DNA of 44,595 nucleotides from a virus. This document shows positions 315 to 25,921 of this stretch, in pieces; the stretch's first letter is position 1; the number at the start of each line of letters is the position of its first letter. The position numbers and the translations under genes are program-made. The notes under the pieces are model-generated. The model made no database searches. It saw only the letters and a list, made by a program, of their open reading frames with translations, and was not told the origin of the DNA. The stretch is taken from the IMG/VR virus record IMGVR_UViG_3300042321_000894, positions 1 to 44,595 of that record; one strand, given 5' to 3'.

Positions 315-334
315 ATCTATTGAACCACGCTGCA

Positions 335-351: not shown

Positions 352-360
352 AAACCAAAA

Positions 361-6172: not shown

Positions 6173-6179
6173 TTGTGTA
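6173..6179 (+). promoter_or_regulatory. TTGTGTA motif upstream of portal
   Basis: An exact TTGTGTA directly abuts the large-terminase stop codon, followed by A/T-only DNA (AAAATATAATATAATA). The portal SD GGAG is at 6216-6219 and its ATG at 6230. It is one of five exact intergenic copies, proposed as a late promoter core. Confidence 0.5.
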
Positions 6180-6229
6180 AAATATAATATAATACAATTG
6201 ACAATACCATTAATCGGAGATCAATACTA

Positions 6230-8332
6230 ATGTCAAAAGAACCATTATACAAGACATGGGAAAGTGAAACTCAAAAACAAGCAGCGTATGACCAAACCCA
6301 TGACAATATTGAAGCGTATGATGGTATACAAAAAGCTGTAGCCTATGGCAGGCGTACTAGTTATTTAGACATTGAGCCAAATCGATCTGTTAGAACTTCT
6401 TTTCTTAGAGAAGACTATGATAATTTTAGGCCCGGTGAACATGTTTCAAATTATCAAAAACGCATCATTAAGATGTGTATGCAGGCTTATGATAAAGTTG
6501 GCATCGTTAGAAATGTTATTGATTTAATGAGCGATTTTGCGGCTCAAGGATTAACAATTGTTCATCCTAATAAAAATGTTGAAAGATTTTATAGAAAATG
6601 GTTTGTTCAAATAGGTGGTGTTGATCGATCTGAAAGGTTTTTGAATTATCTTTATAGATGTGGTAACGTAGTTGTAAAAAGAAGAACAGCTAAATTAAAT
6701 AGAGAAAATGAACAAGAGATACTAAAGACCAGTGGTGCAGATATAGATTTGTCTATAACGAAGGTAAAAAGAAGAGAGATACCTTGGGTATATGACTTTC
6801 TCAATCCGATTGCTATTGATGTTGTAAATTATGGTGGATACATAGTTGGTAAACCAGAATATGTATTAAATATTTCAAAGTATACATATGAGTCTTTGAC
6901 TAAAAGTACAGAAGGCAATAAAGCAATTTTCAAGACTTTGCCAAATGATCTACAAAAAAGAATAGAAGGTGGCGACAGAAGAATACCACTTAATTTAGAT
7001 GAAGTATCGTTTTATCATTATAAAAAAGATGATTGGTTATTATGGGCCAATCCTATGATATATGCAATATTAGACGATATTATCATGTTAGAAAAAATGA
7101 AACTTGCAGATCTAGCCGCTTTAGATGGCGCAATTTCTAATGTCAGATTATGGACTATTGGAGATTTAGATAATAAAATTATACCAACTAAAGCCGCTAT
7201 TAATAAATTAAGAGATATTTTAGCAAGCAACGTTGGTGGCGGAACTATGGATTTAGTATGGGGTCCAGAATTAAAGTTTACAGAAAGTCAATCGCAAGTT
7301 TATAGATTTTTAGGATCAGAAAAATATCAACCAGTATTAACTAGCATATATGCGGGATTGGGTATCCCACCAACATTAACTGGGGCAACTAGTAATGGCG
7401 GATATACTAATAATTATGTTTCTTTAAAAACATTGATTGAAAGACTAGAATATGGTAGAGAAATACTTGCGCAATTTTGGCGTAAAGAAATTGAAATAGT
7501 TCGTAAGGCTATGAATTTTAGATTTCCAGCAGAAATTCATTTTGATTCAATAGTTCTATCTGACGAAGCTGCACAAAAACAATTACTTATTCAGTTAGCT
7601 GATAGAGACATAATTTCTCAAGAAACATTATTAGAGAGATTTAGAGAACTGCCATCAATAGAAAGAGTAAGAGTGAGGCGAGAAGAGCGAGATAGAAAAG
7701 CAGATATTATTCCAGAAAAAGCTAGTCCTTTTCATAATCCTCAACATAAAAACGAGATTGAAAAAATCGCTCTTAATAAAGATATGTTGTCTGATGAATA
7801 TTTTGAAGAAATTGATTTACCAATTAAAGATGCTGTTGTAGTTACCGAAAATTCAATACCTAATGTTCCACAACAAAAGCAAAATACAGAAGTAAAAACC
7901 CCCGGTAGACCACCATTTACTAGGGATACCCAAAAACGTAAACAAAAGCGTGTCTTGCCAAAAACTGGTGAAGCATCTACAGCATTATTATGGGGTATTG
8001 ACGCCCAAAACCAAATTGCTGATATTTTAAATCCAGTAGCTTTAAAACATTTTAATAAACCAAATATACGTAGTTTAAATAAAGACGAACTTAATCAATT
8101 GGATCATTTAAAACTACGAGTATTTTCTAATATGCAAATATTTGAATCAGTTACCGAAGATGGTATTAAGACTATACTTGATAGTAAGCAAAATATACCA
8201 ACACAATGTATGAATGAGATTAATTTACAAATTAAGGCATTCAATACCCACAATAATAGACATGCAACAACTAATGAATTGAAATTTATTTATGCTTCTG
8301 CATTGTGTGAATATGATAAAAATAATGAATAA
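6230..8332 (+). CDS. Portal protein
   Basis: 700 residues. It forms the dodecameric DNA channel at the capsid vertex, docking terminase and later the connectors. The assignment rests on position after large terminase and before the protease, on size, and on typical portal features: a long helical stem segment around 280-330 (LLWANPMIYAILDDIIMLEK), then a PPTLTG loop and NNYVSLKTLIERLEYGR near 380-415. Residues beyond about 480 form an extended charged tail with a basic GRPP linker (559-562) and a helical end of unknown role. SD GGAG is ten bases upstream. Confidence 0.85.
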   Translation: MSKEPLYKTWESETQKQAAYDQTHDNIEAYDGIQKAVAYGRRTSYLDIEPNRSVRTSFLREDYDNFRPGEHVSNYQKRIIKMCMQAYDKVGIVRNVIDLMSDFAAQGLTIVHPNKNVERFYRKWFVQIGGVDRSERFLNYLYRCGNVVVKRRTAKLNRENEQEILKTSGADIDLSITKVKRREIPWVYDFLNPIAIDVVNYGGYIVGKPEYVLNISKYTYESLTKSTEGNKAIFKTLPNDLQKRIEGGDRRIPLNLDEVSFYHYKKDDWLLWANPMIYAILDDIIMLEKMKLADLAALDGAISNVRLWTIGDLDNKIIPTKAAINKLRDILASNVGGGTMDLVWGPELKFTESQSQVYRFLGSEKYQPVLTSIYAGLGIPPTLTGATSNGGYTNNYVSLKTLIERLEYGREILAQFWRKEIEIVRKAMNFRFPAEIHFDSIVLSDEAAQKQLLIQLADRDIISQETLLERFRELPSIERVRVRREERDRKADIIPEKASPFHNPQHKNEIEKIALNKDMLSDEYFEEIDLPIKDAVVVTENSIPNVPQQKQNTEVKTPGRPPFTRDTQKRKQKRVLPKTGEASTALLWGIDAQNQIADILNPVALKHFNKPNIRSLNKDELNQLDHLKLRVFSNMQIFESVTEDGIKTILDSKQNIPTQCMNEINLQIKAFNTHNNRHATTNELKFIYASALCEYDKNNE

Positions 8333-8351
8333 ACTCCACTAATGGTTTTTT

Positions 8352-8358
8352 TTGTGTA
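8352..8358 (+). promoter_or_regulatory. TTGTGTA motif upstream of protease/scaffold/capsid unit
   Basis: An exact TTGTGTA followed by GTATT, at the end of a run of eight T. GGAGG follows at 8369-8373 and the protease ATG at 8384. Together with the terminator at 11425-11460 it brackets the protease, scaffold, decoration and capsid genes as one unit. Confidence 0.5.
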
Positions 8359-8383
8359 GTATTTTTTTGGAGGTACTTACTGA

Positions 8384-9859
8384 ATGAAAATATATAAACA
8401 AGAAATATTAGATGGTTTAGAGCAAGCTCTATCATCGAGTAATACAATTGCATATTGTTCATTGGCAGAAAAGTATACACCAAACGCACAACAAAAAACA
8501 GATACTATAGATAAGCTTAACTCAACACAAGCCTTAGAAGCCGGTAATAAAGATCAAATAGATCTTTTCTATTTAAAATCAATTCTGGTAAGTACTGGCT
8601 GGAATAAAAATGATGATGTATTCGATCCACAAGAACTGTGGAATGCTAGAAATACACCAGAAGACAAGCCATTTAATTTTATGCATAATGAAAAGGATAT
8701 TATTGGTCATATTACTGGAAATGCTGTAGTTGATTTTGAAGGCAATCCAATAAATGAAAACAATGTTCAAGTTCCAAGTCAGTTTAATATTCTTACAACT
8801 TCTGTAATTTATACATCGTGGACAGACGCAGAGCAAAAAGAACGCATGGATAAAATCGTTGCCGAAATAGAAGAAGGCAAATGGTTTGTATCTATGGAAT
8901 GTTTATTTCCAGCTTTTGACTATGCTGTTATAGATAGCAATCGAAAAGCAAGCGTTATACCACGAAATGAAAGTTCAGCATTTTTAACAAAACACCTTAA
9001 AGCTTATGGAGGAACTGGAACATATCAAAACTACCAAGTTGGCAGGCTTTTAAGAAACTTATCGTTCTCTGGTAAAGGCTTAGTTTCAAAGCCAGCTAAT
9101 CCTCGTAGCATAATATTGGAAGGAAATCAATTTTTCGATGAATCCAAGGCTTGTGCCTTAGAAATACACGTAATCAAGGAGAATGAAATGCCCGATAATA
9201 TGACCCAGCAAATTATTGATTTGCAAAAGGAATTAGCCGAGGTCAAGTCTGCTAATGAAGCTCTAAAGGCTGAATTAACAACAAGCAAGACCACAGAATA
9301 CGAAGAAACAATCAAAGAATTACAATCTTCTTTAGCTTCAAAAGTCGAGGAAGTTAATATACTCACAGAAGCTAAAGAGCATTATTCTACAGATATGAAG
9401 AAAAAAGAAGAAGAAATGACAGCTATGGAAAAAAAGATGAAAGAAATGAAAGAAGAAATGGCTGTTATGAAAAAGAAAGAGGCAATGATGAAGCGTAAGG
9501 CTGAACTAGAGGAAGTTGGTCTTGATGCAGAAGAAGCTTCAGCGACAGTTTCTGATTTTGAAAATTCAGATGATGAAACTTTTGCCAAGGTTGTAGCTTT
9601 AATGAAGAAGAAGGCAAAGTATATGACTGAAGAAAAGTCAGTCAAGAAAGATAAGAAGGATACAACTATGGCTCAATCAGAAGACGAAGAAGTTGATGCT
9701 TCTCAGGCTTCAGAAAAAGATCTAGATTCAGTAGAAGAATCAGTAGAAGTTTCTATTGCTGAAGCTGCTGAAGAAAATGAATCTGAATCACTTCGCGCCG
9801 TTGCAAGCGAGTGGCTTGGTTCTATTTTAAGATCGACACCAAAAACCAAAGACAACTGA
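8384..9859 (+). CDS. Prohead protease fused in frame to scaffold domain
   Basis: 491 residues in two parts. Residues 55-265 match a herpes-assemblin-type prohead serine protease: FMHNEKDIIGHITG with H101, and EGKWFVSMEC with S170, as in the nHd...G and vS motifs of the family. It would cleave scaffold and capsid delta segments during maturation. From about 269 to the end the protein is highly charged, coiled-coil (MKKKEEEMTAMEKKMK type) and finally acidic, as expected of a scaffold. An internal start at 9188 probably makes the scaffold alone. SD GGAGG lies ten bases before ATG 8384. Confidence 0.85.
   Translation: MKIYKQEILDGLEQALSSSNTIAYCSLAEKYTPNAQQKTDTIDKLNSTQALEAGNKDQIDLFYLKSILVSTGWNKNDDVFDPQELWNARNTPEDKPFNFMHNEKDIIGHITGNAVVDFEGNPINENNVQVPSQFNILTTSVIYTSWTDAEQKERMDKIVAEIEEGKWFVSMECLFPAFDYAVIDSNRKASVIPRNESSAFLTKHLKAYGGTGTYQNYQVGRLLRNLSFSGKGLVSKPANPRSIILEGNQFFDESKACALEIHVIKENEMPDNMTQQIIDLQKELAEVKSANEALKAELTTSKTTEYEETIKELQSSLASKVEEVNILTEAKEHYSTDMKKKEEEMTAMEKKMKEMKEEMAVMKKKEAMMKRKAELEEVGLDAEEASATVSDFENSDDETFAKVVALMKKKAKYMTEEKSVKKDKKDTTMAQSEDEEVDASQASEKDLDSVEESVEVSIAEAAEENESESLRAVASEWLGSILRSTPKTKDN
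9188..9859 (+). CDS. Nested in-frame scaffold protein (internal start)
   Basis: ATG 9188 is codon 269 of the protease gene and in the same frame. It is preceded by a perfect AAGGAG (9176-9181) six bases upstream. The context AAGGAGAATGAA is repeated almost exactly before the next gene's ATG (9874-9890), so it looks like this phage's normal strong ribosome site. The product would be 223 residues: coiled coil at about 10-130, then an acidic region. Lambda gene C/Nu3 uses the same nested arrangement to make excess scaffold over protease. Seen: the site and the frame. Inferred: that it is used. Confidence 0.65.
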   Translation: MPDNMTQQIIDLQKELAEVKSANEALKAELTTSKTTEYEETIKELQSSLASKVEEVNILTEAKEHYSTDMKKKEEEMTAMEKKMKEMKEEMAVMKKKEAMMKRKAELEEVGLDAEEASATVSDFENSDDETFAKVVALMKKKAKYMTEEKSVKKDKKDTTMAQSEDEEVDASQASEKDLDSVEESVEVSIAEAAEENESESLRAVASEWLGSILRSTPKTKDN

Positions 9860-9887
9860 GAATTACTTTTACTAAGGAGAATGAATA

Positions 9888-10376
9888 ATGGCTCTAAAAA
9901 CTGATAGAAGTGTCTTGCAGACAGATATTTCGTTTTTCATGAACGAATCTGCTACTCGCGGTGGCGTTGTTTCTCTTAGCACTGGCGCATCTGGTGCCGC
10001 TATGGATAACGGTGCTGCTCTAGTAACATACGCAGCTAATCCATCGGGTAAAATTCCTGTTGGTCTTCTTATAAATGACATGGTAGATATTGATCTAACA
10101 AGACAGCATCTTAACCAGCATAAGGACGAGGTACAAAAGGGTGGCAAGGTAACACTACTCCAAAAGGGTTATGTTGTTACAAACAATCTATTGGGTACAG
10201 TAACAGCAGGCGCTCCTGCTTATCTTGCCCATAGTGGTAGACTTGCTACTACAAATGTTTCGACAGATAATACTGATGCAGACGGTTCAACAAGACTTGT
10301 TGGTCGTTTTCTATCAGCCGCTGATGAAGATGGCTATGCTAAAGTCTATATCGACCTTCCAAATACAAATACCTGA
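9888..10376 (+). CDS. Capsid decoration / head-stabilising protein
   Basis: 162 residues, beta-rich and Gly/Ala/Thr-rich, with no membrane segment. It lies directly between scaffold and major capsid, the usual place of a decoration protein, and has the composition of DUF2190-like head proteins (repeated short strands, AGAPAYLAHSGRL motif). It would bind the outside of the capsid lattice after expansion. A strong SD AAGGAG is present. Codon choice is noticeably less AT-biased than in the surrounding genes, as in the capsid gene, which fits high expression. Identification is by context and composition. Confidence 0.6.
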   Translation: MALKTDRSVLQTDISFFMNESATRGGVVSLSTGASGAAMDNGAALVTYAANPSGKIPVGLLINDMVDIDLTRQHLNQHKDEVQKGGKVTLLQKGYVVTNNLLGTVTAGAPAYLAHSGRLATTNVSTDNTDADGSTRLVGRFLSAADEDGYAKVYIDLPNTNT

Positions 10377-10401
10377 GTTAATTAAAAAGGAGATGTAAAA
10401 G

Positions 10402-11400
10402 ATGAAAACAAGACCAACACCTGAGTTTATCGAATTGCTAAAGCGTTCGGGAAGCTCTGATAAGGTAGTCGCAATGGCCGCTCAAAGGGAAATCGCCAAA
10501 GCCCTTGAAACACCAATTCGTAAGGGTGTTTTATTTGGTGATGTTGTAACTTCGATTTTCGAAGCTATGCCACTAGAGCCGGGTGCTACACCTGAGTTCC
10601 CATTGGATCTACTTGCCCCCGGTACTGAGGCAGATCATGTTGCCTATACCAATCCCGGCAATGGTAGAATTCCAGAAAGACATGTCGAAGGTGATTATGT
10701 CATGGTAAATACTTATGGCATTAGTAGCTCAATCGACTTTCTTTTAAAGTATGCCCGTGAAGCTAACTGGAACGTAGTAGCTCGCGCTATGCAGGTTCTA
10801 GAAGCATCATTTGTTAAGAAGATCAATGATGACGGTTGGCACACACTACTCGCTGCTGCTGTTGACCGTAATATTTTAGTGTTCGACAATGATGCAGCTG
10901 GTGGTCAATTTACAAAGCGTCTTGTCAGCTTAATGAAGACAGTTATGAGAAGGAATGGTGGTGGTAACAGTGTTACTGCTCCCGGCCGTCTTACAGATCT
11001 ATACTGCTCTCCAGAAGCTGTCGAAGATATTCGTAACTGGGGTGTTGATCAGCTAGATGAAGTTTCTCGTAGAGAAATTTATGTAGCCGCCGACAATGGC
11101 CCAGCTATAACACGCATCTTCGGTGTAAATCTACACGATGTGTTTGAGTTTGGTGATGGTCAAGAATATCAAACATATTTCACAAGCGATCTCGGTGGCT
11201 CACTTGAGTCCAGCGACGTTGAACTTGTGATTGGTCTTGATCAGAATCAAAACGATAGCTTTGTAATGCCTGTTAAGAAAGAAGTTGAAGTCTATGAAGA
11301 TGAAAGTCTTCATCGTCATCAGCGTCAGGGTTACTATGGCTGGGCTGAAATTGGTTTTGGTGTGCTAGATAACAGACGAGTTCTCGCTGGCTCGTTCTGA
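10402..11400 (+). CDS. Major capsid protein (HK97 fold)
   Basis: 332 residues, a normal size for a small HK97-fold shell protein. Position (protease, scaffold, decoration, capsid, terminator) is the main evidence. Supporting it are an N-terminal helical segment (1-50) that could be the cleaved or scaffold-binding part, an extended segment at 60-110 like an E-loop, and a C-terminal beta region with YGWAEIGFGVLDNRRV. Codons such as CGT, GGT and AAC are favoured more than elsewhere in the window. SD AAGGAG is upstream. A strong hairpin follows the stop. Confidence 0.85.
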   Translation: MKTRPTPEFIELLKRSGSSDKVVAMAAQREIAKALETPIRKGVLFGDVVTSIFEAMPLEPGATPEFPLDLLAPGTEADHVAYTNPGNGRIPERHVEGDYVMVNTYGISSSIDFLLKYAREANWNVVARAMQVLEASFVKKINDDGWHTLLAAAVDRNILVFDNDAAGGQFTKRLVSLMKTVMRRNGGGNSVTAPGRLTDLYCSPEAVEDIRNWGVDQLDEVSRREIYVAADNGPAITRIFGVNLHDVFEFGDGQEYQTYFTSDLGGSLESSDVELVIGLDQNQNDSFVMPVKKEVEVYEDESLHRHQRQGYYGWAEIGFGVLDNRRVLAGSF

Positions 11401-11424
11401 TGTCTTATAACATCTAAAGAGAAT

Positions 11425-11460
11425 AAGGCTACCTCGTTATTCGGGGTAGCCTTCTCTTAT
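11425..11460 (+). terminator. Hairpin terminator after the capsid gene
   Basis: AAGGCTACC (11425-11433) pairs perfectly with GGTAGCCTT (11445-11453) around an 11-base loop, followed by the T-rich tail CTCTTATTTAT. It lies 25 bases after the capsid stop and 10 bases before a TTGTGTA-like motif, so it separates two transcription units. Confidence 0.8.
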
Positions 11461-11462
11461 TT

Positions 11463-11469
11463 ATGTGTA
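11463..11469 (+). promoter_or_regulatory. ATGTGTA variant motif upstream of the fibre genes
   Basis: ATGTGTA differs from the exact motif at the first base only. It follows the capsid terminator and lies ten bases before GGAGG (11479-11483) of the next gene. ATGTGTA also occurs inside genes (about 12365 and 38893), so this copy is weaker evidence than the five exact ones. Position is its main support. Confidence 0.4.
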
Positions 11470-11488
11470 TGAGATATTGGAGGACAAC

Positions 11489-11833
11489 ATGTTCAGCGCA
11501 AACTCTATGTCAAGCTTGCCAATATCTGATGATGGGAAAAAACCAAGAACATTTTTTGGTTCTGTAAAACTATTTTTAAATAAAGCTACATTAACATTTC
11601 CACTTTATTTCAATAGAATACAGAATTTTTCTTTGAGTATGAATTTAGTAAACTCGCTCTCATTAAGTAGAAATATCCTACACGAATTTATAGTTGCTAT
11701 GAATGCTACAATATACAAGAATTTAAATGTGAATAAAATTTTATCCTTCACATTAAGTAAATCAAATATAAATAAACAAATTAATTTTACATTGCAGATT
11801 AATAAGTTAATAGATTTTTCACAGAGAAGATAA
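11489..11833 (+). CDS. Small fibre-region structural protein
   Basis: 114 residues. I start at ATG 11489, five bases after GGAGG, not at the in-frame GTG 11465, which overlaps the regulatory motif. The N-terminus (MFSANSMSSLPISDDG) resembles short anchoring segments seen at the start of many phage tail-associated proteins. The rest is a run of alternating hydrophobic strands (SLSMNLVNSLSLSRN, then NFTLQINKLIDF) with Asn/Ser/Lys turns, a beta-repeat look. Probably a fibre adaptor or short beta-structure protein. Function not established. Confidence 0.5.
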   Translation: MFSANSMSSLPISDDGKKPRTFFGSVKLFLNKATLTFPLYFNRIQNFSLSMNLVNSLSLSRNILHEFIVAMNATIYKNLNVNKILSFTLSKSNINKQINFTLQINKLIDFSQRR

Positions 11834-11835
11834 CT

Positions 11836-12555
11836 ATGCCATTAAAATTATCAGATAGAGTAAGAGAAAATACTACTACTGTTGGTTCTGGTATTTTATC
11901 ATTAGTCGGTAATACAGATGGATTTAGAAGGTTTGATAATGTATTGGCTAGCGGAGATATAACCTATTATTGTATAGAAGAAAATGATAAATTTGAGATT
12001 GGTATTGGCACTTATCAAAACAATAGCATATCTAGAGATTATATACTACAAAGCACTCAGTCTGGATCAAAAATTAATCTTGGTGGTAGTGGCGTAGTAT
12101 TTTTAACATATCCAGCAGATAAAGCTGTATATAAAAATCAAGAAGATCAAACATTAATTGGGCCGTCTGGTATTAGATTCAATGATGGATCTATACAGAC
12201 TTCGGCTTTGTCATCGTCTGTTACTCAAGATATATCATATATATCTGGAATTGCCATTTATAGTTCTGGAGAAATCAATAATAATTATGTTAATATAAAT
12301 TCTGACTATACTGTGTCTAAATCTAATAACAAAATTTTTGTTGATTGTTCATCATCAAATATAAATGTGTATATACCTACAGCATCTGGATTAGGTGGCA
12401 AAGGTTTTACTATCAAAAAAATTACTGGCAATAATGACTTATATATTAGGGCCACTGGTATGGAAACTGTAGATGGTCAGAATCCATATACAGTATTTCA
12501 CGCATATGAAAGTATAAATATTACTTCTAATAATAATAACTGGTTTATCACTTAA
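11836..12555 (+). CDS. Tail-fibre or virion appendage protein
   Basis: 239 residues. Residues 1-100 have the form of a common phage appendage N-domain (KLSDRVRENTTTVGSG, then GFRRFDNVLASGD, FEIGIGTY and VVFLTYPADKA). Residues 155-239 form a second domain that ends IYIPTASG-type strands, then GMETVDGQNPYTVFHAYESI and NNNWFIT. The same C-terminal domain, diverged, closes the next gene, so the two are paralogous there. Likely role: host-facing fibre or baseplate appendage. It starts two bases after the previous stop, with no strong SD. Confidence 0.6.
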   Translation: MPLKLSDRVRENTTTVGSGILSLVGNTDGFRRFDNVLASGDITYYCIEENDKFEIGIGTYQNNSISRDYILQSTQSGSKINLGGSGVVFLTYPADKAVYKNQEDQTLIGPSGIRFNDGSIQTSALSSSVTQDISYISGIAIYSSGEINNNYVNINSDYTVSKSNNKIFVDCSSSNINVYIPTASGLGGKGFTIKKITGNNDLYIRATGMETVDGQNPYTVFHAYESINITSNNNNWFIT

Positions 12556-12575
12556 TATCATATAAAGGAAGCATT

Positions 12576-13715: not shown

Positions 13716-13716
13716 C

Positions 13717-17643: not shown

Positions 17644-17657
17644 ATTAGGAGATTATT

Positions 17658-18230: not shown

Positions 18231-18234
18231 TTTT

Positions 18235-18567: not shown

Positions 18568-18581
18568 ATTAGGAGAAAATT

Positions 18582-18746: not shown

Positions 18747-18753
18747 TTGTGTA
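18747..18753 (+). promoter_or_regulatory. TTGTGTA motif upstream of connector genes
   Basis: An exact TTGTGTA immediately after the TAA of the 54-residue gene, followed by GTATTCTAC and GGAGG (18763-18767), with ATG at 18776. The nine bases downstream of the motif are close to those of the copy at 8352. Confidence 0.5.
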
Positions 18754-18775
18754 GTATTCTACGGAGGCAAAAAAA

Positions 18776-19102: not shown

Positions 19103-19113
19103 GGGGTCAATAA

Positions 19114-19614
19114 ATGTCATGGAAACTAGATTTAGTTTTAATGTTAAGATCTATTATAGGAGATCTTGACGCCGCAAAATTTACTGACGAAAGATTAAAA
19201 CAGATTCTAGTCATCGGAGCTTTTAATGTATTAAATGATGCTGATTTTGTAAATGAATATACCATAGATATAGGATCGGTTTCAATAAGTCCAGATCCGA
19301 TAGAGATTAATGATTATGATTTCTCTATAATGACAGTATATAAATCTGCATGTATATTAGTTGGTAGTGAAGTTAAAACAGAATCAGCCAATTCTATATC
19401 TATTAAAGATGGGCCATCGGCTATTGATTTAAGAGGCGTTACACAGAGCTTAATAGTTTTGTATAACGATCTTTGCAAAAAATATGAAGATATGTTAACC
19501 GATTATCGATACAACAATACACTTGTTGGTCAAGCTATTCTTGGTCCATATAGTCCCGGCAGTATGATACTTGGCGCAAATCAATTCGATTATAGAGGTA
19601 ATGTTTTTCAATAG
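19114..19614 (+). CDS. Head-tail connector (adaptor) protein
   Basis: 166 residues, mostly helical, starting SWKLDLVLMLRSIIGD. The segment FTDERLKQILVIGAFNV is typical of gp6/gp15-type adaptors, which ring the portal underside. Residues 80-140 are a second helical bundle and the C-terminus is a Gly/Pro-rich tail. Downstream genes have the right order for stopper and completion proteins. Confidence is moderate because the family is divergent and I rely on fold pattern and order. Confidence 0.5.
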   Translation: MSWKLDLVLMLRSIIGDLDAAKFTDERLKQILVIGAFNVLNDADFVNEYTIDIGSVSISPDPIEINDYDFSIMTVYKSACILVGSEVKTESANSISIKDGPSAIDLRGVTQSLIVLYNDLCKKYEDMLTDYRYNNTLVGQAILGPYSPGSMILGANQFDYRGNVFQ

Positions 19615-19623
19615 GAGATTATT

Positions 19624-19881
19624 ATGGCAATATGTCAGAAAATTGTTTCTGCTAACTCTCAACCATCTGGTGGAAAGGGTGTAGTTAGTATAGCTGGCGC
19701 AAAAGGTTTATACTCTAGCAATAATCCCATTTCAGATATTGCTAATAAAAATATAGTATCACCATTTCCACCATACGAAGCAAGCCAACTAGATCAAACA
19801 GTTAGTGTAATAAATAATAAACTAGATACTAGATTCGATGATGTTGCATATTACTTTGGTGTAGATGGAGGGGTAGGATGA
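19624..19881 (+). CDS. Hypothetical structural-cluster protein (85 aa)
   Basis: 85 residues. The first half is Gly/Ser-rich with short strands (GGKGVVSIAGAKGLYSS). The second half is a helix (SQLDQTVSVINNKLDTRFDD) that could form a short coiled coil. Function unknown. SD AGGAG is upstream. Its stop overlaps the next start in an ATGA junction, so the pair is co-translated, perhaps as partners. Confidence 0.5.
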   Translation: MAICQKIVSANSQPSGGKGVVSIAGAKGLYSSNNPISDIANKNIVSPFPPYEASQLDQTVSVINNKLDTRFDDVAYYFGVDGGVG

Positions 19882-20159
19882 GTCGCCCACCAAAGATTAG
19901 ATTAAGAAGAGACACTAGTACTAATTTAGTAGCCAATAATCCTATATTGGCAAGTGGTGAACCAATATTTGCTATGGATACTAAGATGCTCAAAATTGGA
20001 GATAATTCCACAGCATGGACTGCTTTGCCAGCAATAATTAAATCAGATACTACTGGTATCACTGGAGCAAGCGGAATATACAACATTGTATCTATTTCTT
20101 CTGGTAATTATAGCGCGTTAGGATCATATGATCCTAATACCATATATTTTGTTTATTGA
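19878..20159 (+). CDS. Small fibre N-domain-like protein
   Basis: 93 residues. The first 50 form a well-known appendage N-domain pattern: IRLRRDTSTNLVANNPILAS, then GEPIFAMDTKMLKIGD and TAWTALP, as at the start of many phage fibre and tropism proteins. Here the chain stops after a short beta extension, so it is either a stand-alone adaptor or the remnant of a longer fibre. The ATGA overlap with the gene before suggests coupling. Confidence 0.6.
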   Translation: MSRPPKIRLRRDTSTNLVANNPILASGEPIFAMDTKMLKIGDNSTAWTALPAIIKSDTTGITGASGIYNIVSISSGNYSALGSYDPNTIYFVY

Positions 20160-20160
20160 A

Positions 20161-20183
20161 ATGGTGATATATGGTGATATATG
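20161..20183 (+). repeat. Tandem ATGGTGATAT repeat at a gene start
   Basis: ATGGTGATAT occurs twice in direct tandem (20161-20170 and 20171-20180) and is followed by a third ATG at 20181, the start of the next small ORF. Each unit offers a GGTGAT stretch that could act as a weak ribosome site. The ATGs in the two repeat units are in other frames. Confidence 0.6.
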
Positions 20184-20315
20184 ACATTTATACCAGAATC
20201 TACAATATATATTGGTCCACAGCCAGTTGTCTCTATTGCGTTTGGAGAAGTTTTACTCAAAATTATCAAAGTAGGTGAAACAGAAATAGCCGATTTAACA
20301 AATGAAAACGGGTAA
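20181..20315 (+). CDS. 44-residue small ORF
   Basis: ATG 20181 opens 44 codons (MTFIPESTIYIGPQPVVSIA to LTNENG) ending at TAA 20313-20315, two bases before the next ATG. Composition resembles the neighbouring structural proteins: one predicted strand-rich core (VVSIAFGEVLLKIIKVG). The ribosome site is weak (GGTGAT in the tandem repeat). Without it there would be a 158-base gap in an otherwise packed cluster, so I accept it with caution. Confidence 0.45.
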   Translation: MTFIPESTIYIGPQPVVSIAFGEVLLKIIKVGETEIADLTNENG

Positions 20316-20317
20316 TT

Positions 20318-20830
20318 ATGGCAATAAATATACCAAGTTCAGTATTTGATACATATAATGAAGCTGTATTATTATTTACTAGAACAGCCACATTGGTATA
20401 TCCAGAAAAAAAAGAAGATTGTCCAAATTGCCGTTCTGATACATTAGGAACTAAAACACGATCAGTTAGCGTATATGTTCCTAATGGGCCATATCCATTT
20501 GAGCGTGGTATGCCATGCCCATACTGCAATGGACAAGGCTTTAAAGCTGTGGAATCAACAGACGAAATTGTACTAAGAATATATTGGGATAAAAGATTTT
20601 GGGTTAATGTTGGATTTCCTTTAGACGTACCAGATGGATCTATTCAGACTATTGCTTATATGATAGATTTACCAAAGATAGAAAAATGTAAATACCTTAT
20701 ACCAAATTATGATGGAATAGAAAAGTACGATAAATCTAAATATCAAAGAACTGGGCCATCTTTTCCACAGGGCTTCAAACAAAATAATACTAAATATGTA
20801 GTAACTTTTTGGAAGCGAATCAATGGTTAG
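20318..20830 (+). CDS. Zinc-ribbon head-completion or neck protein
   Basis: 170 residues with two CxxC knuckles, C35/C38 (CPNC) and C67/C70 (CPYCNGQG, a DnaJ-like turn), which would bind one zinc ion. The rest is a beta-barrel-like chain (IVLRIYWDKRFWVNVGFPLD). Position between adaptor and completion genes suggests a stopper or neck component in which zinc stabilises a small protein. It overlaps the next gene by eight bases. Confidence 0.5.
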   Translation: MAINIPSSVFDTYNEAVLLFTRTATLVYPEKKEDCPNCRSDTLGTKTRSVSVYVPNGPYPFERGMPCPYCNGQGFKAVESTDEIVLRIYWDKRFWVNVGFPLDVPDGSIQTIAYMIDLPKIEKCKYLIPNYDGIEKYDKSKYQRTGPSFPQGFKQNNTKYVVTFWKRING

Positions 20831-21431
20831 AATTAACATTGTTGAAACAGATACACAGATTGCAAAAAGAATACATGCCGCATATGGGGCAGCAGTTCAA
20901 AAATATCTAAATGATGCTAGTAGCAAAGTATTGAATTCGTTAAAACCAACCATTGTTTCTGCTATAACATCTAGTCCAGAAATGCAATCTGTAGAGGGTG
21001 GCTTATTGAAAGCAGATTTTGGATTAACATCTAGTCCAGTTAGTGTTATAGTTGATAGTATTGTATCAACATTAAATCTTAAAACTCAAAAAGTTATTAC
21101 TAATTCAAATAAAATGACGGGTGGTTTTTTGATCACCATGCAACCAAATAACTATAGTAATTTATTTAATTTGCCACAAGCTAATCAAAAAATTATTAAT
21201 GGATCATTACCTTGGCTGGAGTGGTTATTAACATTTGGGGATACTGTTATTATTGTTAATTCAAAAGTAGAATATGGCCCATATGGAAGAACCGGTTTAG
21301 CAAAAATGACTAGAGGTGGGCCATTTAAAGTAAATAGCGCTTTTTCTGGAACTGTTGATGATAATTTTATTACTAGAGCTTTAAAGCGAAATGAACAGGC
21401 TATTTTACAAAGTATTAAGAGGGTATTATAA
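20823..21431 (+). CDS. Putative tail-completion / HK97 gp10-like protein
   Basis: 202 residues. The N-terminal half is helical and may be extended. The C-terminal part has the pattern of gp10-type completion proteins: a core with KVEYGPYGRTG, then GGPFKVNSAFSG and an amphipathic end helix FITRALKRNEQAILQS. These proteins join the neck to the tail tube. No strong SD; it starts inside the preceding gene, and its stop shares one base with the next ATG (TAATG). Confidence 0.45.
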   Translation: MVRINIVETDTQIAKRIHAAYGAAVQKYLNDASSKVLNSLKPTIVSAITSSPEMQSVEGGLLKADFGLTSSPVSVIVDSIVSTLNLKTQKVITNSNKMTGGFLITMQPNNYSNLFNLPQANQKIINGSLPWLEWLLTFGDTVIIVNSKVEYGPYGRTGLAKMTRGGPFKVNSAFSGTVDDNFITRALKRNEQAILQSIKRVL

Positions 21432-22390
21432 TGGCTGGTGGTCCTCATACCAAATTAGCTAATTTAAACAATGCGCAAGACTCCACACTATCTAATATCT
21501 TATTAGATAACTTTGTTTATTTTTATGATTGGGGATTTTTAGATCGTGGCTCATTTTTTAATATTAAGATCCCACATTCTGGCATATATGGTGGCAATAG
21601 GCATAAATTAAGACCGGTTGATGATCCCAACTACAGTGATGGCAAAGTGTGGGAGGCATATAGAAAAAATTGGGTTTGGGAAAGTGGAATATCTGCCACC
21701 ACACAGCAACCAATTTCAATTTCTGGTTTATTTATTAATAACACCTTTTATGCTACTGGTAATGTATCTAAGCCATATTATATAGATTATACAAATGGTA
21801 AAATAATATTTAATACAGCTATTTCTACTACAAGTAATGTACAGTTAGAATATTCACATAAGTGGGTAGAGGTGGTTCCAGCGCAAGGTATACCATTTTT
21901 TAGAGAAATTCAACTTGGCTCATTTAGAAACGACGATGGCTTTCAAGTCAGTAATTCTGGTGGATGGGCGCAGTTGGGGGAAACTAGAGTACAATTACCA
22001 ACAATAGCTGTAGAAGTATTAACTCCACAATCGCTGCAAGGCTATCAATTGGGTGGTGGTCAATGGGTTAATAATGACATAGTATTTTATGTACTCACAG
22101 AAAATCATTGGGAGTGTATGAATATTATGGATAGTATTTTATATCAAAATGATAGAACTATACATTTATTTAACCCCACATCTGTTGCTATATCTGGAAC
22201 ATTTCCATTTAATTATAGAAATGAATTAAATGCGAACGCAGTGCCAAGCGGAATGTATCCTAATTTAATAGATAATTTTTTCTATAGACAATGTTATATT
22301 TATGACTCTAAAGGTAGCGCGATCACGCAACTTTCTCCGGGTCTATATATGGGTACTAGTCGCTGTAGAACTCAAGTTAAAGCAATATAA
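21431..22390 (+). CDS. Virion structural protein (319 aa), unknown role
   Basis: 319 residues, rich in aromatics and Asn, mostly beta (FVYFYDWGFLDRGSFFNIKI near the start; TNGKIIFNTAISTTSNVQLE in the middle), with no membrane segment or enzyme motif. It sits between the completion protein and the major tail protein, where a tail terminator or neck protein is expected, but its size is larger than those. I do not recognise it. It ends eight bases before a TTGTGTA motif. Confidence 0.55.
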   Translation: MAGGPHTKLANLNNAQDSTLSNILLDNFVYFYDWGFLDRGSFFNIKIPHSGIYGGNRHKLRPVDDPNYSDGKVWEAYRKNWVWESGISATTQQPISISGLFINNTFYATGNVSKPYYIDYTNGKIIFNTAISTTSNVQLEYSHKWVEVVPAQGIPFFREIQLGSFRNDDGFQVSNSGGWAQLGETRVQLPTIAVEVLTPQSLQGYQLGGGQWVNNDIVFYVLTENHWECMNIMDSILYQNDRTIHLFNPTSVAISGTFPFNYRNELNANAVPSGMYPNLIDNFFYRQCYIYDSKGSAITQLSPGLYMGTSRCRTQVKAI

Positions 22391-22398
22391 AGAAATTT

Positions 22399-22405
22399 TT
22401 GTGTA
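22399..22405 (+). promoter_or_regulatory. TTGTGTA motif upstream of major tail protein
   Basis: An exact TTGTGTA followed by TATACATATG. It lies eight bases after the preceding stop; the AGGAG ribosome site of the tail protein follows about 40 bases on. It stands at the start of a high-output unit (tail tube). Confidence 0.5.
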
Positions 22406-22455
22406 TATACATATGACCTTTACCAGAGGAATAATACAAAAATAGGAGAGATATA

Positions 22456-23469
22456 ATGGCTTTTAATCAACGCATTTTCTATGCCTGTCAGGCAGTGGCA
22501 GTAGCCCCAAGAGGTACTGGTGCAATTACTTCTTCGTATATTGTACACGGTCTACAAAGCGTGGGTATGACATCGACATTTACTCTTGAGCAAATTTTTG
22601 AAATGGGTCAATTAGCAATTTATGAAAACGTAGAAGAAGTTGCTGATATTGAGGTTACTTTGGAAAAAGTAATCGATGGTTACAAGCTTATATTTGATCT
22701 TGCTACTAGCGGCGCTTGTAAAACTGACTTAGTAGCAGCATCTAAGGCGAGATCAGACGTATATGTTGCTGTATTTGATGATGGTTTATCTAATGCAACT
22801 GGTGTTCCTAGAAATGTATGTATGAACTCTGGTATGTTCGTTAGCTCTGTAAGCTATAGTTATTCAGTAGATGGAAATGCCACAGAGTCTGTTACACTAG
22901 TTGGTAATGATAGATTCTGGAATAATACAACTGCTGGTGTTATTGGTTCTACACCAAATACTCTTTGGACCACTAGTAATCCAACTTCCAATTTTGATGG
23001 TGAAGATGTGCCAAAATCCGGCGTTGTTCGTAGAGTCGATGTTGATCTAGCAGGCTCTACTTTACCAGACGAAGTTAAGTCACAAATGAATAATGATGCA
23101 GTTGGCCTTGGTGGTGGTTATCACGTTCAAAGTATTACAGTTAGTACTGACTTTGGGCAAGAGAATATTCAAGAACTAGGTCGATTTGGACCATATACAA
23201 GATATGCCACATTCCCAATCGAAGTTACATCTGAATTTGAAGTTATTGCCACTTCTGGTGATTTAATAAATGTTTCTGGCAATGCTCCAAACTTAATAGA
23301 TAGAGCAATTACAATCAAAGATACCGCTGGTACAGTTTTAAACCTTGGCACAAAGAATAAACTAACCTCTGTATCATATTCTGGTGGGGATACTGGTGGT
23401 GGTAATGCTACTATTACCTATAGTTATTCTAACTACAATGTATTAACAGTACAGGGTGGCGCCACTTAA
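22456..23469 (+). CDS. Major tail (tube) protein
   Basis: 337 residues, beta-rich, beginning MAFNQRIFYACQAVAVAP. The sequence alternates strands and has a tube-protein-like core (FTLEQIFEMGQLAIYENVEE, then a helix) with an Ig-like end (LTSVSYSGGDTGGGNATITY) as in other tube subunits with surface domains. It is placed before chaperone-like genes and the tape measure. Less AT-biased codons, like the capsid gene, fit very high expression. SD AGGAG. No adjacent gene looks like a contractile sheath. Confidence 0.75.
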   Translation: MAFNQRIFYACQAVAVAPRGTGAITSSYIVHGLQSVGMTSTFTLEQIFEMGQLAIYENVEEVADIEVTLEKVIDGYKLIFDLATSGACKTDLVAASKARSDVYVAVFDDGLSNATGVPRNVCMNSGMFVSSVSYSYSVDGNATESVTLVGNDRFWNNTTAGVIGSTPNTLWTTSNPTSNFDGEDVPKSGVVRRVDVDLAGSTLPDEVKSQMNNDAVGLGGGYHVQSITVSTDFGQENIQELGRFGPYTRYATFPIEVTSEFEVIATSGDLINVSGNAPNLIDRAITIKDTAGTVLNLGTKNKLTSVSYSGGDTGGGNATITYSYSNYNVLTVQGGAT

Positions 23470-23490
23470 TTTTGTTAGTTCGGATAATGG

Positions 23491-24546
23491 ATGGATAGTA
23501 TAATACTAGAACAAATATTATATAGAATAATACAAGGTCGCTTACGTATCAGACTAGGCGACCTTGTTCTATATATACATGAGCCATGTAGAGAATTACT
23601 AGAGGAATCAGTAGATATTTATACTGACGCTTATAATAAAGCATATTTTGATAATATCCCATTAAAAAGTGAATTGTTGCCAATATTAGTAGAAAATAAT
23701 CTTTGGACACCATTTGATGACAAAGAAGCAGATAAAATTGAAAATCAAATTGAAGAACTAAAAATACAAGCATTTAAAAATTTCTTTAGCTCAAAAACAT
23801 TGAACAGTATCAAAAGAAATATTCAATTTAATGAAAAAAGAATGCTTAAATATCGTTCAAAAAAATCCTGTCTAGACTATACTTCCTGTGAAGGGGTTGC
23901 TAATTTTGCTAGATCGGTATGGCTTATTTCTAAAACTACATATGATGGATCTGGCAATTTATATGATTGGAATAAATATGGTATATCATATATTATGGAT
24001 AAATATAATGAGTCAACAATTACTGTAGAACAATTTAGAAAAATAGCTAGAAGCGAACCTTGGAGATCTATGTGGGCCGCTTCTAAAAAACATGGTAATT
24101 TGTTTAATAAGCCATCCATAGAATATACTAAAGAGCAATTATATTTGTGTTCTTATTCCTGTATGTATGATAATATCTATGAGAGTAGTGAATGCCCAAA
24201 TGAAAAAGTCATAGATGATGATGATTGTTTAGATGGTTGGATGATAATAAGAAGAAGAGAGCATGATAAGCACAGAAAAGAACAAGAAGTAAATTCGATG
24301 TTGAAAAACCCCAAAATAGCCAACGCACAAGAGGTATTTTTAGTTGCTAGAGATCAAGAAGCCGCCCAAGAAATATATGGTTTAAATAATCCAATAGCGA
24401 GAAATGTGGTTAAATCTAGAGCAGAAAAAATAGTTAACGCTAATGGTCAAATTAAGTTTACAGAGTTTGATGATATTAAACAAGACATTGCTATACAGCG
24501 TAATCAACAGGCAATCAATAGCATAAAAGGAAAGGGTAGTAGATAA
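23491..24546 (+). CDS. Tail-assembly region protein (351 aa)
   Basis: 351 residues, helical and charged, unknown family. A cysteine group lies in the middle (YLCSYSCMYDNIYESSECPN) followed by an acidic DDDDCLDGW turn. The N-terminus (ILYRIIQGRLRIRLGDLVLY) is encoded across a strong RNA hairpin (23532-23567). Genes between tube and tape measure normally encode tail-assembly chaperones, so I infer that role. The SD is weak, which agrees with lower output than the tube gene just upstream. Its stop shares one base with the next ATG. Confidence 0.5.
   Translation: MDSIILEQILYRIIQGRLRIRLGDLVLYIHEPCRELLEESVDIYTDAYNKAYFDNIPLKSELLPILVENNLWTPFDDKEADKIENQIEELKIQAFKNFFSSKTLNSIKRNIQFNEKRMLKYRSKKSCLDYTSCEGVANFARSVWLISKTTYDGSGNLYDWNKYGISYIMDKYNESTITVEQFRKIARSEPWRSMWAASKKHGNLFNKPSIEYTKEQLYLCSYSCMYDNIYESSECPNEKVIDDDDCLDGWMIIRRREHDKHRKEQEVNSMLKNPKIANAQEVFLVARDQEAAQEIYGLNNPIARNVVKSRAEKIVNANGQIKFTEFDDIKQDIAIQRNQQAINSIKGKGSR
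23532..23567 (+). terminator. Strong hairpin just after the tail-tube gene, inside next ORF
   Basis: ACAAGGTCGC (23532-23541) pairs perfectly with GCGACCTTGT (23558-23567) around a 16-base loop, and the flanks ATAGA and TCTAT could extend the stem past a small bulge. It lies about 60 bases after the tube stop and within the first codons of the next gene. The downstream DNA (TCTATATATAC) is A/T-rich but not a clean T run, so it may be a partial terminator, an attenuator or a translation brake. Confidence 0.55.
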
Positions 24547-24932
24547 TGGATGACTATAACAATTTTCTAAAAAAATCACTAGACTTAAAAGCTGCTAGAG
24601 AATCTCGCAATAAAGAAGTGTCTAGAGATAAATTATTCAAAATGTCTAAAAAGAAAATACAAACTACTATGATCGGCGCTCTATCTACCATAGAGGAAAA
24701 TTTTGGATTTCTATGGGGCTTATCTATTTCAGAGGGTGAACGTAGCGAGGAACAAAAAAAGATACAAGAATTATATGAAGACGCTCGCGCCAAAATATTG
24801 GATCGTGGAAATACTCAGATTAGAAACTTAGAATCTGAGTTCATAAATTATGATATTACAAGGAAAAAATACTTGATCAATCTACCAGTATCGCAATTAA
24901 AACAAGAAGGAGACGATAAAAATGAAGGATAA
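24546..24932 (+). CDS. Putative tail-assembly chaperone (small)
   Basis: 128 residues, highly charged and almost wholly helical (KKSLDLKAARESRNKEVSRD start; a GFLWGLSISEGERSEEQKK turn). Size and place two genes before the tape measure fit a lambda gpG-type chaperone that coats the tape measure. It overlaps the following gene by 11 bases. I looked for a -1 slippery sequence that would fuse it to the next ORF and saw no classical heptamer; the next gene has its own SD. The call is by position. Confidence 0.45.
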   Translation: MDDYNNFLKKSLDLKAARESRNKEVSRDKLFKMSKKKIQTTMIGALSTIEENFGFLWGLSISEGERSEEQKKIQELYEDARAKILDRGNTQIRNLESEFINYDITRKKYLINLPVSQLKQEGDDKNEG

Positions 24933-25887
24933 GATTCAAGACAAAGAAAGACTAGTCGAAAGTGTGGATGATAATAATCAACCCGTCAAGGTACTAGTTA
25001 GAAGGCCAACACCAGAGGACTATAGAGATTCTCAAATTGCCTATAATAAAGCCTTTAGAAAGGCACTAGATTCTGGTGGTTTGCTTAAACAAAAGCTCAA
25101 TGACTATATGACAGAACAGGGCATATGGAGTGAGAGCAAGCAAAAACAATATGATGACTATATTGATAATATTAGAAATAAAGAAGATCTATTAAAGGGT
25201 GGTGGTATTAAATTATCAGAAGCAAAACAAATTGCTTTAGAGTTACGCTCTTTAAGAGGAGACTTTCAAATATTTCTTGCAGAAAAAAATGCATTAGAAA
25301 CTAATTCTGTTGAAGGTCAAGCAGACAATGCTAGATTTGCTGAACTAGTAAGACTGTGTTTGTTAAATCCAGACACAAAACAGAAATACTTTCCAGATCA
25401 AGAATCTTATGATGCTAATGCTACACAGCCTTGGGTTATAGAAGCTTCTTCTGCTTTAGCGAATATGCTTTACAATCTTGATCCTAATTATGTAAATAAT
25501 CTTGAAGAAAATAAATTCTTAAAGGAATTTAAGTTTGTAAATGATGATCTAAAATTGATCGACAAAGATGGTAACTTAGTTGACATTGATGGAAGATTAA
25601 TTAATGAAGATGGTCGCTTTATTGCCTATAGAACAGAAGAGGGCAAGAAAAATAAAGATCAATCTCAGGTGTATTTCGTAAATCGTGATGGCAAAGAAGT
25701 TGTTGCTGTTACTAATGCTGATGGCGAAGAAGAATGGGTCAGAATAGATCTTAAAGAGCGTAAACCATTCCTAGACGATGATGGAAGCCCGATTGCCACA
25801 TCAGATTCTAGCGAAGAAGATGACGATAATAATGTTCAAAATAAGAGGAAAAAAAGGTCGGTAAAAACAGAAGCCGAACCGGCTTGA
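24922..25887 (+). CDS. Putative tail-assembly chaperone (large)
   Basis: 321 residues, strongly charged, helical for the first 200. A run of short imperfect repeats near 205-225 (DKDGNLVDIDGRLINEDGRF) reads as a beta-hairpin repeat of the form x-DG-x. The acidic/basic tail (SSEEDDDNNVQNKRKKRS) is probably disordered. It stands where a GT-type chaperone would be and is separately initiated: AAGGAG lies before ATG 24922. It is much larger than lambda T, so this role is inferred only from position. The stop TGA abuts a TTGTGTA motif. Confidence 0.45.
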   Translation: MKDKIQDKERLVESVDDNNQPVKVLVRRPTPEDYRDSQIAYNKAFRKALDSGGLLKQKLNDYMTEQGIWSESKQKQYDDYIDNIRNKEDLLKGGGIKLSEAKQIALELRSLRGDFQIFLAEKNALETNSVEGQADNARFAELVRLCLLNPDTKQKYFPDQESYDANATQPWVIEASSALANMLYNLDPNYVNNLEENKFLKEFKFVNDDLKLIDKDGNLVDIDGRLINEDGRFIAYRTEEGKKNKDQSQVYFVNRDGKEVVAVTNADGEEEWVRIDLKERKPFLDDDGSPIATSDSSEEDDDNNVQNKRKKRSVKTEAEPA

Positions 25888-25894
25888 TTGTGTA
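25888..25894 (+). promoter_or_regulatory. TTGTGTA motif upstream of tape measure
   Basis: An exact TTGTGTA directly after the preceding stop codon, followed by TTAAATAC. Unlike the other copies it has a hairpin (25922-25946) between it and the next gene. Confidence 0.45.
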
Positions 25895-25921
25895 TTAAAT
25901 ACAAAGGACTAAACCGACTAA

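What the first reader, a model, noticed from the sequence alone, without database searches (positions are those of the whole stretch)
6173..25894. A recurring intergenic TTGTGTA element marks nearly every late transcription unit
Exact TTGTGTA lies at 6173, 8352, 18747, 22399 and 25888, and ATGTGTA at 11463. Each is between genes, on the coding strand, and at the start of a sensible unit: portal; protease/scaffold/capsid; fibres; connectors; tail tube; tape measure. Gaps outside the 5' leader total only a few hundred bases, and reading through the genes I noticed TTGTGTT and TTGTGTG but no plus-strand TTGTGTA; at least two reverse-strand copies occur inside the giant gene (about 36600 and 37099). 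No conserved -35 box accompanies it. Three copies start immediately after a stop codon. Most likely this is a phage-specific late promoter core, in the way TATAAATA is for T4. An RNA-processing or reinitiation site is the alternative.
Basis: partly seen in the sequence, partly recalled or inferred. Interest (0 to 1): 0.8.

Follow-up and report, generated by a model that had tools for sequence, protein, structure and literature searches.

The report
Late-gene promoter of uncultured phages
A short DNA signal repeated in front of the structural gene blocks of a large family of uncultured phages is most likely the switch that turns on their late genes, probably read by the host's RNA polymerase carrying a phage-encoded sigma factor.

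Summary
TTGTGTA has exactly five plus-strand copies in the window, all intergenic and where reported. The total is not unusual (8 against 9.75 expected); the placement is. The window is the first 44,595 bases of a 103,630-base phage contig. In uncultured relatives TTGTGTA ranks first among 7-mers for excess in gaps over the reverse strand and over coding sequence (185 forward, 2 reverse, 1.7 expected). It recurs before the same orthologous late genes (portal-position gene 59 of 86, protease-position gene 71 of 89, 22456 gene 23 of 26, tape measure 16 of 26) but before no terminase (0 of 69) or capsid gene (0 of 74).

Early-strand gaps carry sigma70-type promoters instead (96 of 311, against 10 of 183 late-strand gaps). 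The phages encode a two-domain sigma factor on the early strand and a second sigma-like protein heading the late strand.

Verdict: a phage late promoter, working like phiEco32's tAATGTAtA/gp36 system. No transcript or binding data exist. New lineage and consensus, known kind.

The parts
6173..6189 (+). late promoter element TTGTGTAAAAT before the portal-position gene 6230-8332; predicted start 6189 (TA step)
   Evidence: TTGTGTA in 59 of 86, TGTGTA in 75; matrix score 16.0; G, not A, at -24
8352..8368 (+). late promoter element TTGTGTAGTAT before 8384-9859, then cement and capsid genes; no purine at the predicted start (TT)
   Evidence: 71 of 89; 16.3
11463..11479 (+). weaker late promoter candidate ATGTGTATGAG; TG step at the predicted start; the next gene more likely starts at ATG 11489 (in frame, after GGAGG) than at GTG 11465
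   Evidence: 16 of 21 have TTGTGTA here; score only 9.1
18747..18763 (+). late promoter element TTGTGTAGTAT before 18776-22390; CG step at the predicted start
   Evidence: TTGTGTA 5 of 26, TGTGTA 15 of 26; 13.2
22399..22415 (+). late promoter element TTGTGTATATA before 22456-25887; predicted start 22415 (TG step)
   Evidence: 23 of 26; TGTGTA 26 of 26; 19.8, best in the contig
25888..25904 (+). late promoter element TTGTGTATTAA before the tape measure gene; AA, not T-purine, at the predicted start
   Evidence: 16 of 26; TGTGTA 24 of 26; 18.8
578..1099 (+). second phage sigma-like protein (s2, 173 aa), sigma region 2 only by Pfam
   Evidence: Sigma70_r2 2e-6; phrog_351, phrog_1740 7e-7
1..360 (+). 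leader upstream of the s2-terminase unit; no TTGTGTA in this genome, but GTGTATA upstream of s2 in 47 of 55 relatives' loci
4193..6172 (+). terminase large subunit
6230..8332 (+). gene in the portal position (700 aa); portal not confirmed by family search
   Evidence: no family
8384..9859 (+). gene in the protease/scaffold position (491 aa); function not confirmed
   Evidence: no family
9888..10376 (+). structural cement protein
   Evidence: PF22758 2.1e-7
10402..11400 (+). major capsid protein
   Evidence: phrog_2522 1.1e-6
11425..11453 (+). intrinsic-terminator-like hairpin after the capsid gene, just before 11463
25967..33664 (+). tape measure protein (2565 aa)
   Evidence: phrog_28 1.2e-20

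Best explanation
TTGTGTA is the core of a phage late promoter, TTTTGTGTATAAT, in the -10 position. Transcription is predicted to start 16 bases after the first T of TTGTGTA, at a T-purine step where present, and an A-rich block about 24 bases upstream of the core acts like a -35 or UP element. Host RNA polymerase is most likely directed there by a small phage sigma factor (s1, 153 aa, sigma regions 2 and 4) encoded on the early strand, outside the window. Early genes are read from sigma70-type promoters; s1 then builds up and switches on each structural unit, and in many relatives also the unit that carries s2 and terminase. Shown: placement, conservation, strand bias, two promoter classes, sigma genes. 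Inferred: promoter activity, start site, timing, and that s1 is the factor.
For: (1) Five of five plus copies intergenic. (2) 196 redundant loci: 279 intergenic plus copies, 1 intergenic minus. (3) Word count in 830 distinct gaps: TTGTGTA 185 forward, 2 reverse, 1.7 expected; first among 7-mers by my score, ahead of Shine-Dalgarno words. (4) Same orthologous sites; terminase 0 of 69, capsid 0 of 74; the reverse word occurs at most twice at any gene; same picture in 13 large contigs. (5) A matrix from 105 representatives not of this genome ranks 22399, 52787, 25888, 8352, 6173, 18747 as the top six plus-strand places of 103,630 bases and 91773 as the top minus place; training sequences all hold TGTGTA, so the telling part is that these 7 outrank the 11 other TTGTGTA copies of the contig. 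(6) T-purine at +15/+16 in 54% of 111 representatives, 5-26% at 24 other offsets. (7) A at -24 in 76-93% at five sites. (8) 13 large contigs: sigma70-type sites in 96 of 311 early-strand gaps (reverse control 13) and 10 of 183 late-strand gaps (control 20); TTGTGTA in 45 of 183 late and 15 of 311 early gaps. (9) s1 has Sigma70 regions 2 and 4; in 38 members 18 of 25 invariant columns lie in K56-Q63 and N129-R138, the presumed DNA-reading parts. (11) phiEco32's measured sigma promoters, tAATGTAtA with starts 6-8 bp downstream, share TGTATA and the spacing (PMC8948821 passages).
Against: No transcript, binding or genetic data. Related sequences inflate the significance. In the window T-purine stands at only 3 of 6 sites (pyrimidine-purine at 4; not at 8352 and 25888), A at -24 at 5 of 6. 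Among representatives the T-purine step is weak at the tape measure (6 of 18) and absent at 11465 (0 of 2); A at -24 is absent at 18776 (0 of 5) and 11465 (0 of 2). s1 was found in 15 of 20 records, but 10 of the 20 were chosen by s1; of the other 10, 5 have it, some misses being fragments. Upstream of s1, no sigma70-type site or TGTGTA element was found within about 8 kb in 4 of 9 contigs (G002, G003, G004, G015). One s2 gap (G002) also has a sigma70-like site. s2 is also strongly conserved in its region 2. 15 of 311 early-strand gaps have TTGTGTA. This genome's s2-terminase unit has none. Profiles of s1 against gp36, 7-11 gp47 and T4 gp55 were not significant.
Confidence: 0.73

Rival explanations
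1. A late promoter as above, but read by s2 (sigma region 2 only), with s1 serving another class. A sigma cascade like SPO1's (recalled).
For: s2 is conserved (102 relatives found, 80 kept), heads the late strand, and has a sigma region 2 with many invariant residues. phiEco32 gp36, which reads a single-element promoter, also lacks region 4 (PMC8948821 passages).
Against: s2 itself lies downstream of [TAG]TGTGTAT in 6 of 8 large contigs and of GTGTATA in 47 of 55 loci (in a 51-locus count 44 forward, 7 reverse). The conserved A-block suggests a region 4 contact (inference).
Confidence: 0.14
2. The motif is an extended -10 used by the host's own sigma factor with a phage activator bound to the A-rich block.
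For: TGTGTATAAT resembles an extended -10 (TG before TATAAT); bases after TTGTGTA lean to T, A.
Against: The bases after TTGTGTAT are only weakly conserved while TTGTG is strong, and the TG spacing is one base off the usual TGnTATAAT (recalled). Early-strand genes use a different TTGACA/TATAAT class.
Confidence: 0.08
3. RNA-processing or translation-reinitiation site between cistrons of one long late transcript.
For: Sense-strand, intergenic, three of five window copies right after a stop. At four of the five sites folded there is no hairpin bias in the 65 bases upstream, so the units are not clearly ended by terminators.
Against: A fixed-distance A-block upstream and T-purine step downstream are not expected of a cleavage site. 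Distance to the next start varies (5th-95th percentile 18-77). Not seen before terminase or capsid genes. At the site after the capsid gene a strong hairpin precedes it (4 of 4 representatives).
Confidence: 0.04
4. Chance placement of a 7-mer in one genome.
For: Total count equals chance.
Against: Conservation in relatives.
Confidence: 0.005

Closest known systems
phiEco32 gp36 (phage sigma) and its middle/late promoters tAATGTAtA
   Same: Phage sigma; one dominant -10-like element sharing TGTATA; start 6-8 bp downstream; sites before structural genes; sigma70 early promoters (PMC8948821 abstract and passages). phiEco32's AATGTATA has 7 copies, 5 of them intergenic by my ORF calls. gp36, s1 and, more weakly, s2 match phrog_1740.
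   Different: TTG instead of tAA at the 5' end; an A-rich upstream block; s1 has region 4 while gp36 is reported to lack it; a second sigma-like gene; no significant direct profile match of s1 or s2 to gp36.
Salmonella phage 7-11 gp47 and its late promoters GTAAtg-(16)-aCTA
   Same: Phage sigma with region 4 and bipartite late promoters (PMC8948821 abstract and passages).
   Different: Different consensus; no significant profile match.
T4 gp55/gp33/gp45 late transcription
   Same: Phage sigma-like factor and one short -10 element for late genes (PMC2988020 passages on gp55; the TATAAATA consensus is recalled or from the finding, that word was not found in the text).
   Different: Different consensus; s1 carries region 4; clamp dependence untested; s1 and s2 profiles do not match gp55 significantly.
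Two-domain (ECF-like) sigma70-family factors, e.g. E. coli SigE
   Same: s1 has regions 2 and 4 only by Pfam and its model matches sigma factors, SigE among them.
   Different: Best sequence match among solved structures is WhiG; promoter motif unlike the ECF GGAAC type (recalled).

Membership tests
Phage late-promoter regulon read by a phage sigma factor (phiEco32/T4 kind) | One consensus repeated upstream of late structural units on the coding strand | tested here: met
Phage late-promoter regulon read by a phage sigma factor (phiEco32/T4 kind) | Genome encodes a sigma-family protein | tested here: met
   s1 missing from some contigs, several of them fragments
Phage late-promoter regulon read by a phage sigma factor (phiEco32/T4 kind) | Distinct host-type promoters on early genes | tested here: met
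   (96 of 311 early-strand gaps, 10 of 183 late-strand gaps)
Phage late-promoter regulon read by a phage sigma factor (phiEco32/T4 kind) | Transcription starts mapped downstream of the element | not testable with these tools
   only the T-purine signature at +15/+16 was seen
Phage late-promoter regulon read by a phage sigma factor (phiEco32/T4 kind) | The sigma factor directs transcription from the element in vitro | not testable with these tools
   no wet-lab data
phiEco32 gp36 sigma family (by sequence) | Significant profile similarity to gp36 | tested here: inconclusive
   shared phrog_1740, but direct profile comparison not significant
phiEco32 gp36 promoters | Single element without upstream box | tested here: not met
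   A-rich block at -24
T4 gp55 late sigma | Significant similarity to gp55 | tested here: not met
   7d7c (gp55) ranks 29th, E 1.1, for the s2 model
T4 late system | Sliding-clamp activation | not tested
   no clamp gene was searched for
sigma70-family factor (s1) | Region 2 and region 4 domains | tested here: met
   (5.2e-9 and 2.1e-10)
sigma70-family factor (s2) | Region 2 and region 4 domains | tested here: inconclusive
   region 2 only by Pfam; C-terminal helices in the model after a low-confidence stretch
Phage single-subunit or multisubunit RNA polymerase promoters | Phage RNA polymerase gene | tested here: inconclusive
   regular-expression search in five contigs gave no convincing motif; no Pfam hit for the giant protein; not every protein was scanned

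The most novel reading that the evidence does not exclude
An uncultured lineage of roughly 100-155 kb phages runs a two-step sigma programme: host sigma70 reads the early strand, an early two-domain phage sigma (s1) opens bipartite A-block/TTGTGTATAAT late promoters, and one of the first products is a second phage sigma (s2) that takes over a later or boosted class. The promoter language stays nearly fixed while the s1 proteins diverge to about 40% identity.
Probability: 0.3. Interest if true: 0.62.

Novelty: new member of a known kind. Interest (0 to 1): 0.5.

Why it matters
It gives a readable late-gene switch, with a predicted start base, for a phage lineage for which no close cultured relative was found in the phage collection searched. 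It lets late transcription units be called in many metagenomic contigs without RNA. It also adds a likely sigma-promoter pair for studying how phage sigma factors choose DNA.

Tried and rejected
Overall enrichment of TTGTGTA in the window: rejected, count equals chance. Depletion inside genes: not supported (138 sense, 137 antisense). Sigma70-type sites in window 6050-26040: 97 found, 97.1 expected. Hits upstream of g92235 and g86614 are mostly ATGTGTA inside upstream genes and were dropped, though three g92235 rows (L287, L290, L293) look real; also dropped were CTGTGTA hits and hits over 92 bases from the start except at g91014, which took 137 representatives to 111. Of the 111, 88 have exact TTGTGTA. 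Smaller hits at g19114 (3 of 29) and g11836 (3 of 55) were not pursued. A free-position search for an upstream hexamer gave a diffuse A-rich word. Phage RNA polymerase: none found by patterns in five contigs. Close homology of s1 or s2 to gp36, gp47 or gp55: not significant. Rfam: no match at gathering scores. Host: four metagenome-bin contigs carry a related capsid gene (two Flavobacteriales, one Alphaproteobacteria, one Chitinophagia); sigma70-type early promoters and strong Shine-Dalgarno words make Bacteroidota doubtful (that contrast is recalled); undecided. Literature: searches with TTGTGTA/phage/promoter, late promoter/phage-encoded sigma factor/marine/motif, phiEco32/sigma factor/promoter, phage sigma factor/late promoter consensus/metagenome-assembled/phage, and TGTGTATA/phage listed no title or abstract start describing this motif; the listed papers were not all opened, and that library lacks most subscription journals.

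Full report
What was checked. Gene calls put all five TTGTGTA copies in the 1192 non-gene bases of the window. Both strands together hold 8 copies against 9.75 expected, so the signal lies in the placement, not the number. ATGTGTA has four further plus-strand copies inside genes, so 11463 needs other support, which relatives give.

Where the window comes from. It is an IMG/VR record without found end repeats. It equals the first 44,595 bases of a 103,630-base contig, G001, but for one base at 14665. That contig has a plus block (about 0.6-53.8 kb: terminase, capsid, tape measure) and a minus block (about 54-103.6 kb: split PolIII alpha, Toprim primase, RecA, PhoH, class II ribonucleotide reductase, dUTPase). 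The phage collection gives only distant hits: terminase 26% to Bacillus phage Stills, capsid 22% to phage G, none for the 6230 and 22456 genes.

Relatives. In 196 loci (redundant, overlapping) TTGTGTA has 279 intergenic plus copies and 1 intergenic minus copy, against 138 sense and 137 antisense copies in about 2.1 Mb of genes. With exact duplicates removed, 830 same-strand gaps (52,442 bases) hold 185 forward and 2 reverse copies; coding sequence predicts 1.7. Among 7-mers seen 25 times or more it ranks first by excess over the larger of the reverse count and the expectation; some Shine-Dalgarno words have no reverse copies but smaller excess. By site, among distinct 150-base upstream stretches: 6230 gene 59 of 86; 8384 gene 71 of 89; 11465 gene 16 of 21; 18776 gene 5 of 26 (15 with TGTGTA); 22456 gene 23 of 26; tape measure 16 of 26 (24 with TGTGTA); 52834 gene 2 of 4 (4 with TGTGTA); the gene after s1 33 of 46. 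Terminase 0 of 69, capsid 0 of 74; the replication genes sampled 0, with 1 to 13 stretches each. The reverse word occurs at most twice at any gene. Thirteen large contigs show the same sites.

Anatomy. The aligned element is T-rich, then TTGTGTA, then T (80%), A/T, and weak A/T preference. A T-purine step at +15/+16 stands out: 54% of 111 representatives against 5-26% at the other 24 offsets tested. With the purine as start, TTGTGTATA ends 8 bases before it. In the window itself T-purine is found at 3 of 6 sites and pyrimidine-purine at 4 of 6. A is found at -24 in 81, 93, 76, 83 and 92% at the five best-sampled sites and at 5 of 6 window sites, but in 0 of 5 representatives at 18776 and 0 of 2 at 11465. 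Representatives are related, so the p-values overstate the surprise. A matrix trained on 105 representatives not from this genome puts the six plus-strand intergenic TTGTGTA sites at the head of all plus-strand places in 103,630 bases, and the one after s1 at the head of the minus strand. All training sequences contain TGTGTA, so high scores for TTGTGTA copies are partly built in; the useful result is that these 7 outrank the contig's 11 other copies. 11463 scores at background.

Two promoter classes. In 13 large contigs (not independent: G001/G014 and G016/G022 look near-identical or overlapping) gaps on the early strand carry a TTGACA/TATAAT site (10 of 12 or better) in 96 of 311, reverse control 13; late-strand gaps in 10 of 183, control 20. 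TTGTGTA: 45 of 183 late, 15 of 311 early. Upstream of s2 (51 loci) such sites point into the late strand in 12 and into the early strand in 25.

The likely reader. G001 91781-92242 (minus) encodes s1, 153 aa, Pfam Sigma70 region 2 (5.2e-9) and region 4 (2.1e-10). 71 loci encode it. It is in 15 of 20 records tested, but 10 of these were chosen because they have it; of the other 10, 5 do. Across 38 members, 40-71% identical to the first, 18 of 25 invariant columns lie at K56-Q63 and N129-R138, which I take for regions 2.3/2.4 and 4.2 (region names recalled). The window itself encodes s2 at 578-1099, Sigma70 region 2 only (2e-6); it is in 9 of 20 records, four of the 20 chosen by it, plus one weak match that is a third sigma-like protein. 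s2 is also well conserved in region 2. Contigs G001, G002, G003, G015 and G018 have both s1 and s2.

Order of events (inferred). s2 lies downstream of GTGTATA in 47 of 55 loci; in a 51-locus count 44 have it forward and 7 reverse. The nearest element upstream of s2 is [TAG]TGTGTAT in 6 of 8 large contigs, in G002 beside a sigma70-like site; not in G001, whose contig begins there, nor in G018. s1 lies on the early strand. Upstream of it within about 8 kb, sigma70-type sites were found in 4 of 9 contigs (a perfect TTGACA-16-TATAAT about 1.07 kb upstream in G018; 10 of 12 matches in G001, G014, G022) and GTGTGTA-type elements in 4 of 9 (G001, G014, G020, G022); 4 of 9 had neither.

Closest known. 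PMC8948821 (abstract and passages) reports phiEco32 sigma gp36 promoters tAATGTAtA with starts 6-8 bp downstream, gp36 lacking region 4, and 7-11 sigma gp47 with region 4 and bipartite GTAAtg-(16)-aCTA. PMC4331800 (passages) discusses phage-sigma promoters upstream of the sigma gene. TTGTGTATA and tAATGTAtA agree at seven of nine places. As a control, phiEco32's AATGTATA has 7 copies, 5 of them intergenic by my ORF calls. s1 and gp36 share phrog_1740, as does s2 more weakly, but direct profile comparison is not significant, so this is a likeness in working, not a proven kinship. T4 gp55 (PMC2988020 passages) is a looser parallel.

What is not shown. No 5' end, no binding, no expression timing; 'late' and 'early' are read from gene content. 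The functions 'portal' and 'protease' are positional only.

Noticed in passing
window 25920-25950 (5' leader of the tape measure gene): A G-rich hairpin followed by T-rich sequence lies between the TTGTGTA element and the tape measure start. Hairpins of differing sequence are predicted there in most of 19 relatives (mean z -1.9 against mononucleotide shuffles), although the window's own leader folds no better than dinucleotide shuffles (z -0.5). Possible attenuator or 5' stabiliser.
   Followed up: partly
window 11425-11453: Strong intrinsic-terminator-like hairpin after the capsid gene, directly before the next promoter; 4 of 4 representatives fold strongly there, the four other sites tested show no such bias.
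   Followed up: partly
upstream of s2 in relatives, e.g. L313, L318, L322, L328: A variant TTTGGTGTATAATA preceded about 20 bases upstream by a TTTGTGTGCATAT-like word, perhaps a separate promoter subclass.
   Followed up: partly
G016 85233-85712, G022 33779-34258, G020 49445-49924, G017 18505-18984 (pieces L376-L419): A third 159-aa sigma-like protein in some relatives, found as a weak match to the s2 profile.
   Followed up: partly
window 33664-43227: Giant 3187-aa protein after the tape measure with no Pfam or PHROGs match.
   Followed up: no
G001 71607-75658 (L200): PolIII alpha domains lie on two ORFs with other ORFs between them.
   Followed up: no
window 1890-2888; G001 56188-56871 (L199) and 75651-76559 (L200): Sugar-related genes: a GDP-mannose 4,6-dehydratase-like protein, a glucosyltransferase-like ORF (phrog_2835) and an exostosin/GT47-like ORF.
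   Followed up: no
window 18582-18746 and 20181-20315: Two short ORFs (54 and 44 codons) below the listing threshold that fill gaps; the first follows an AGGAG.
   Followed up: partly
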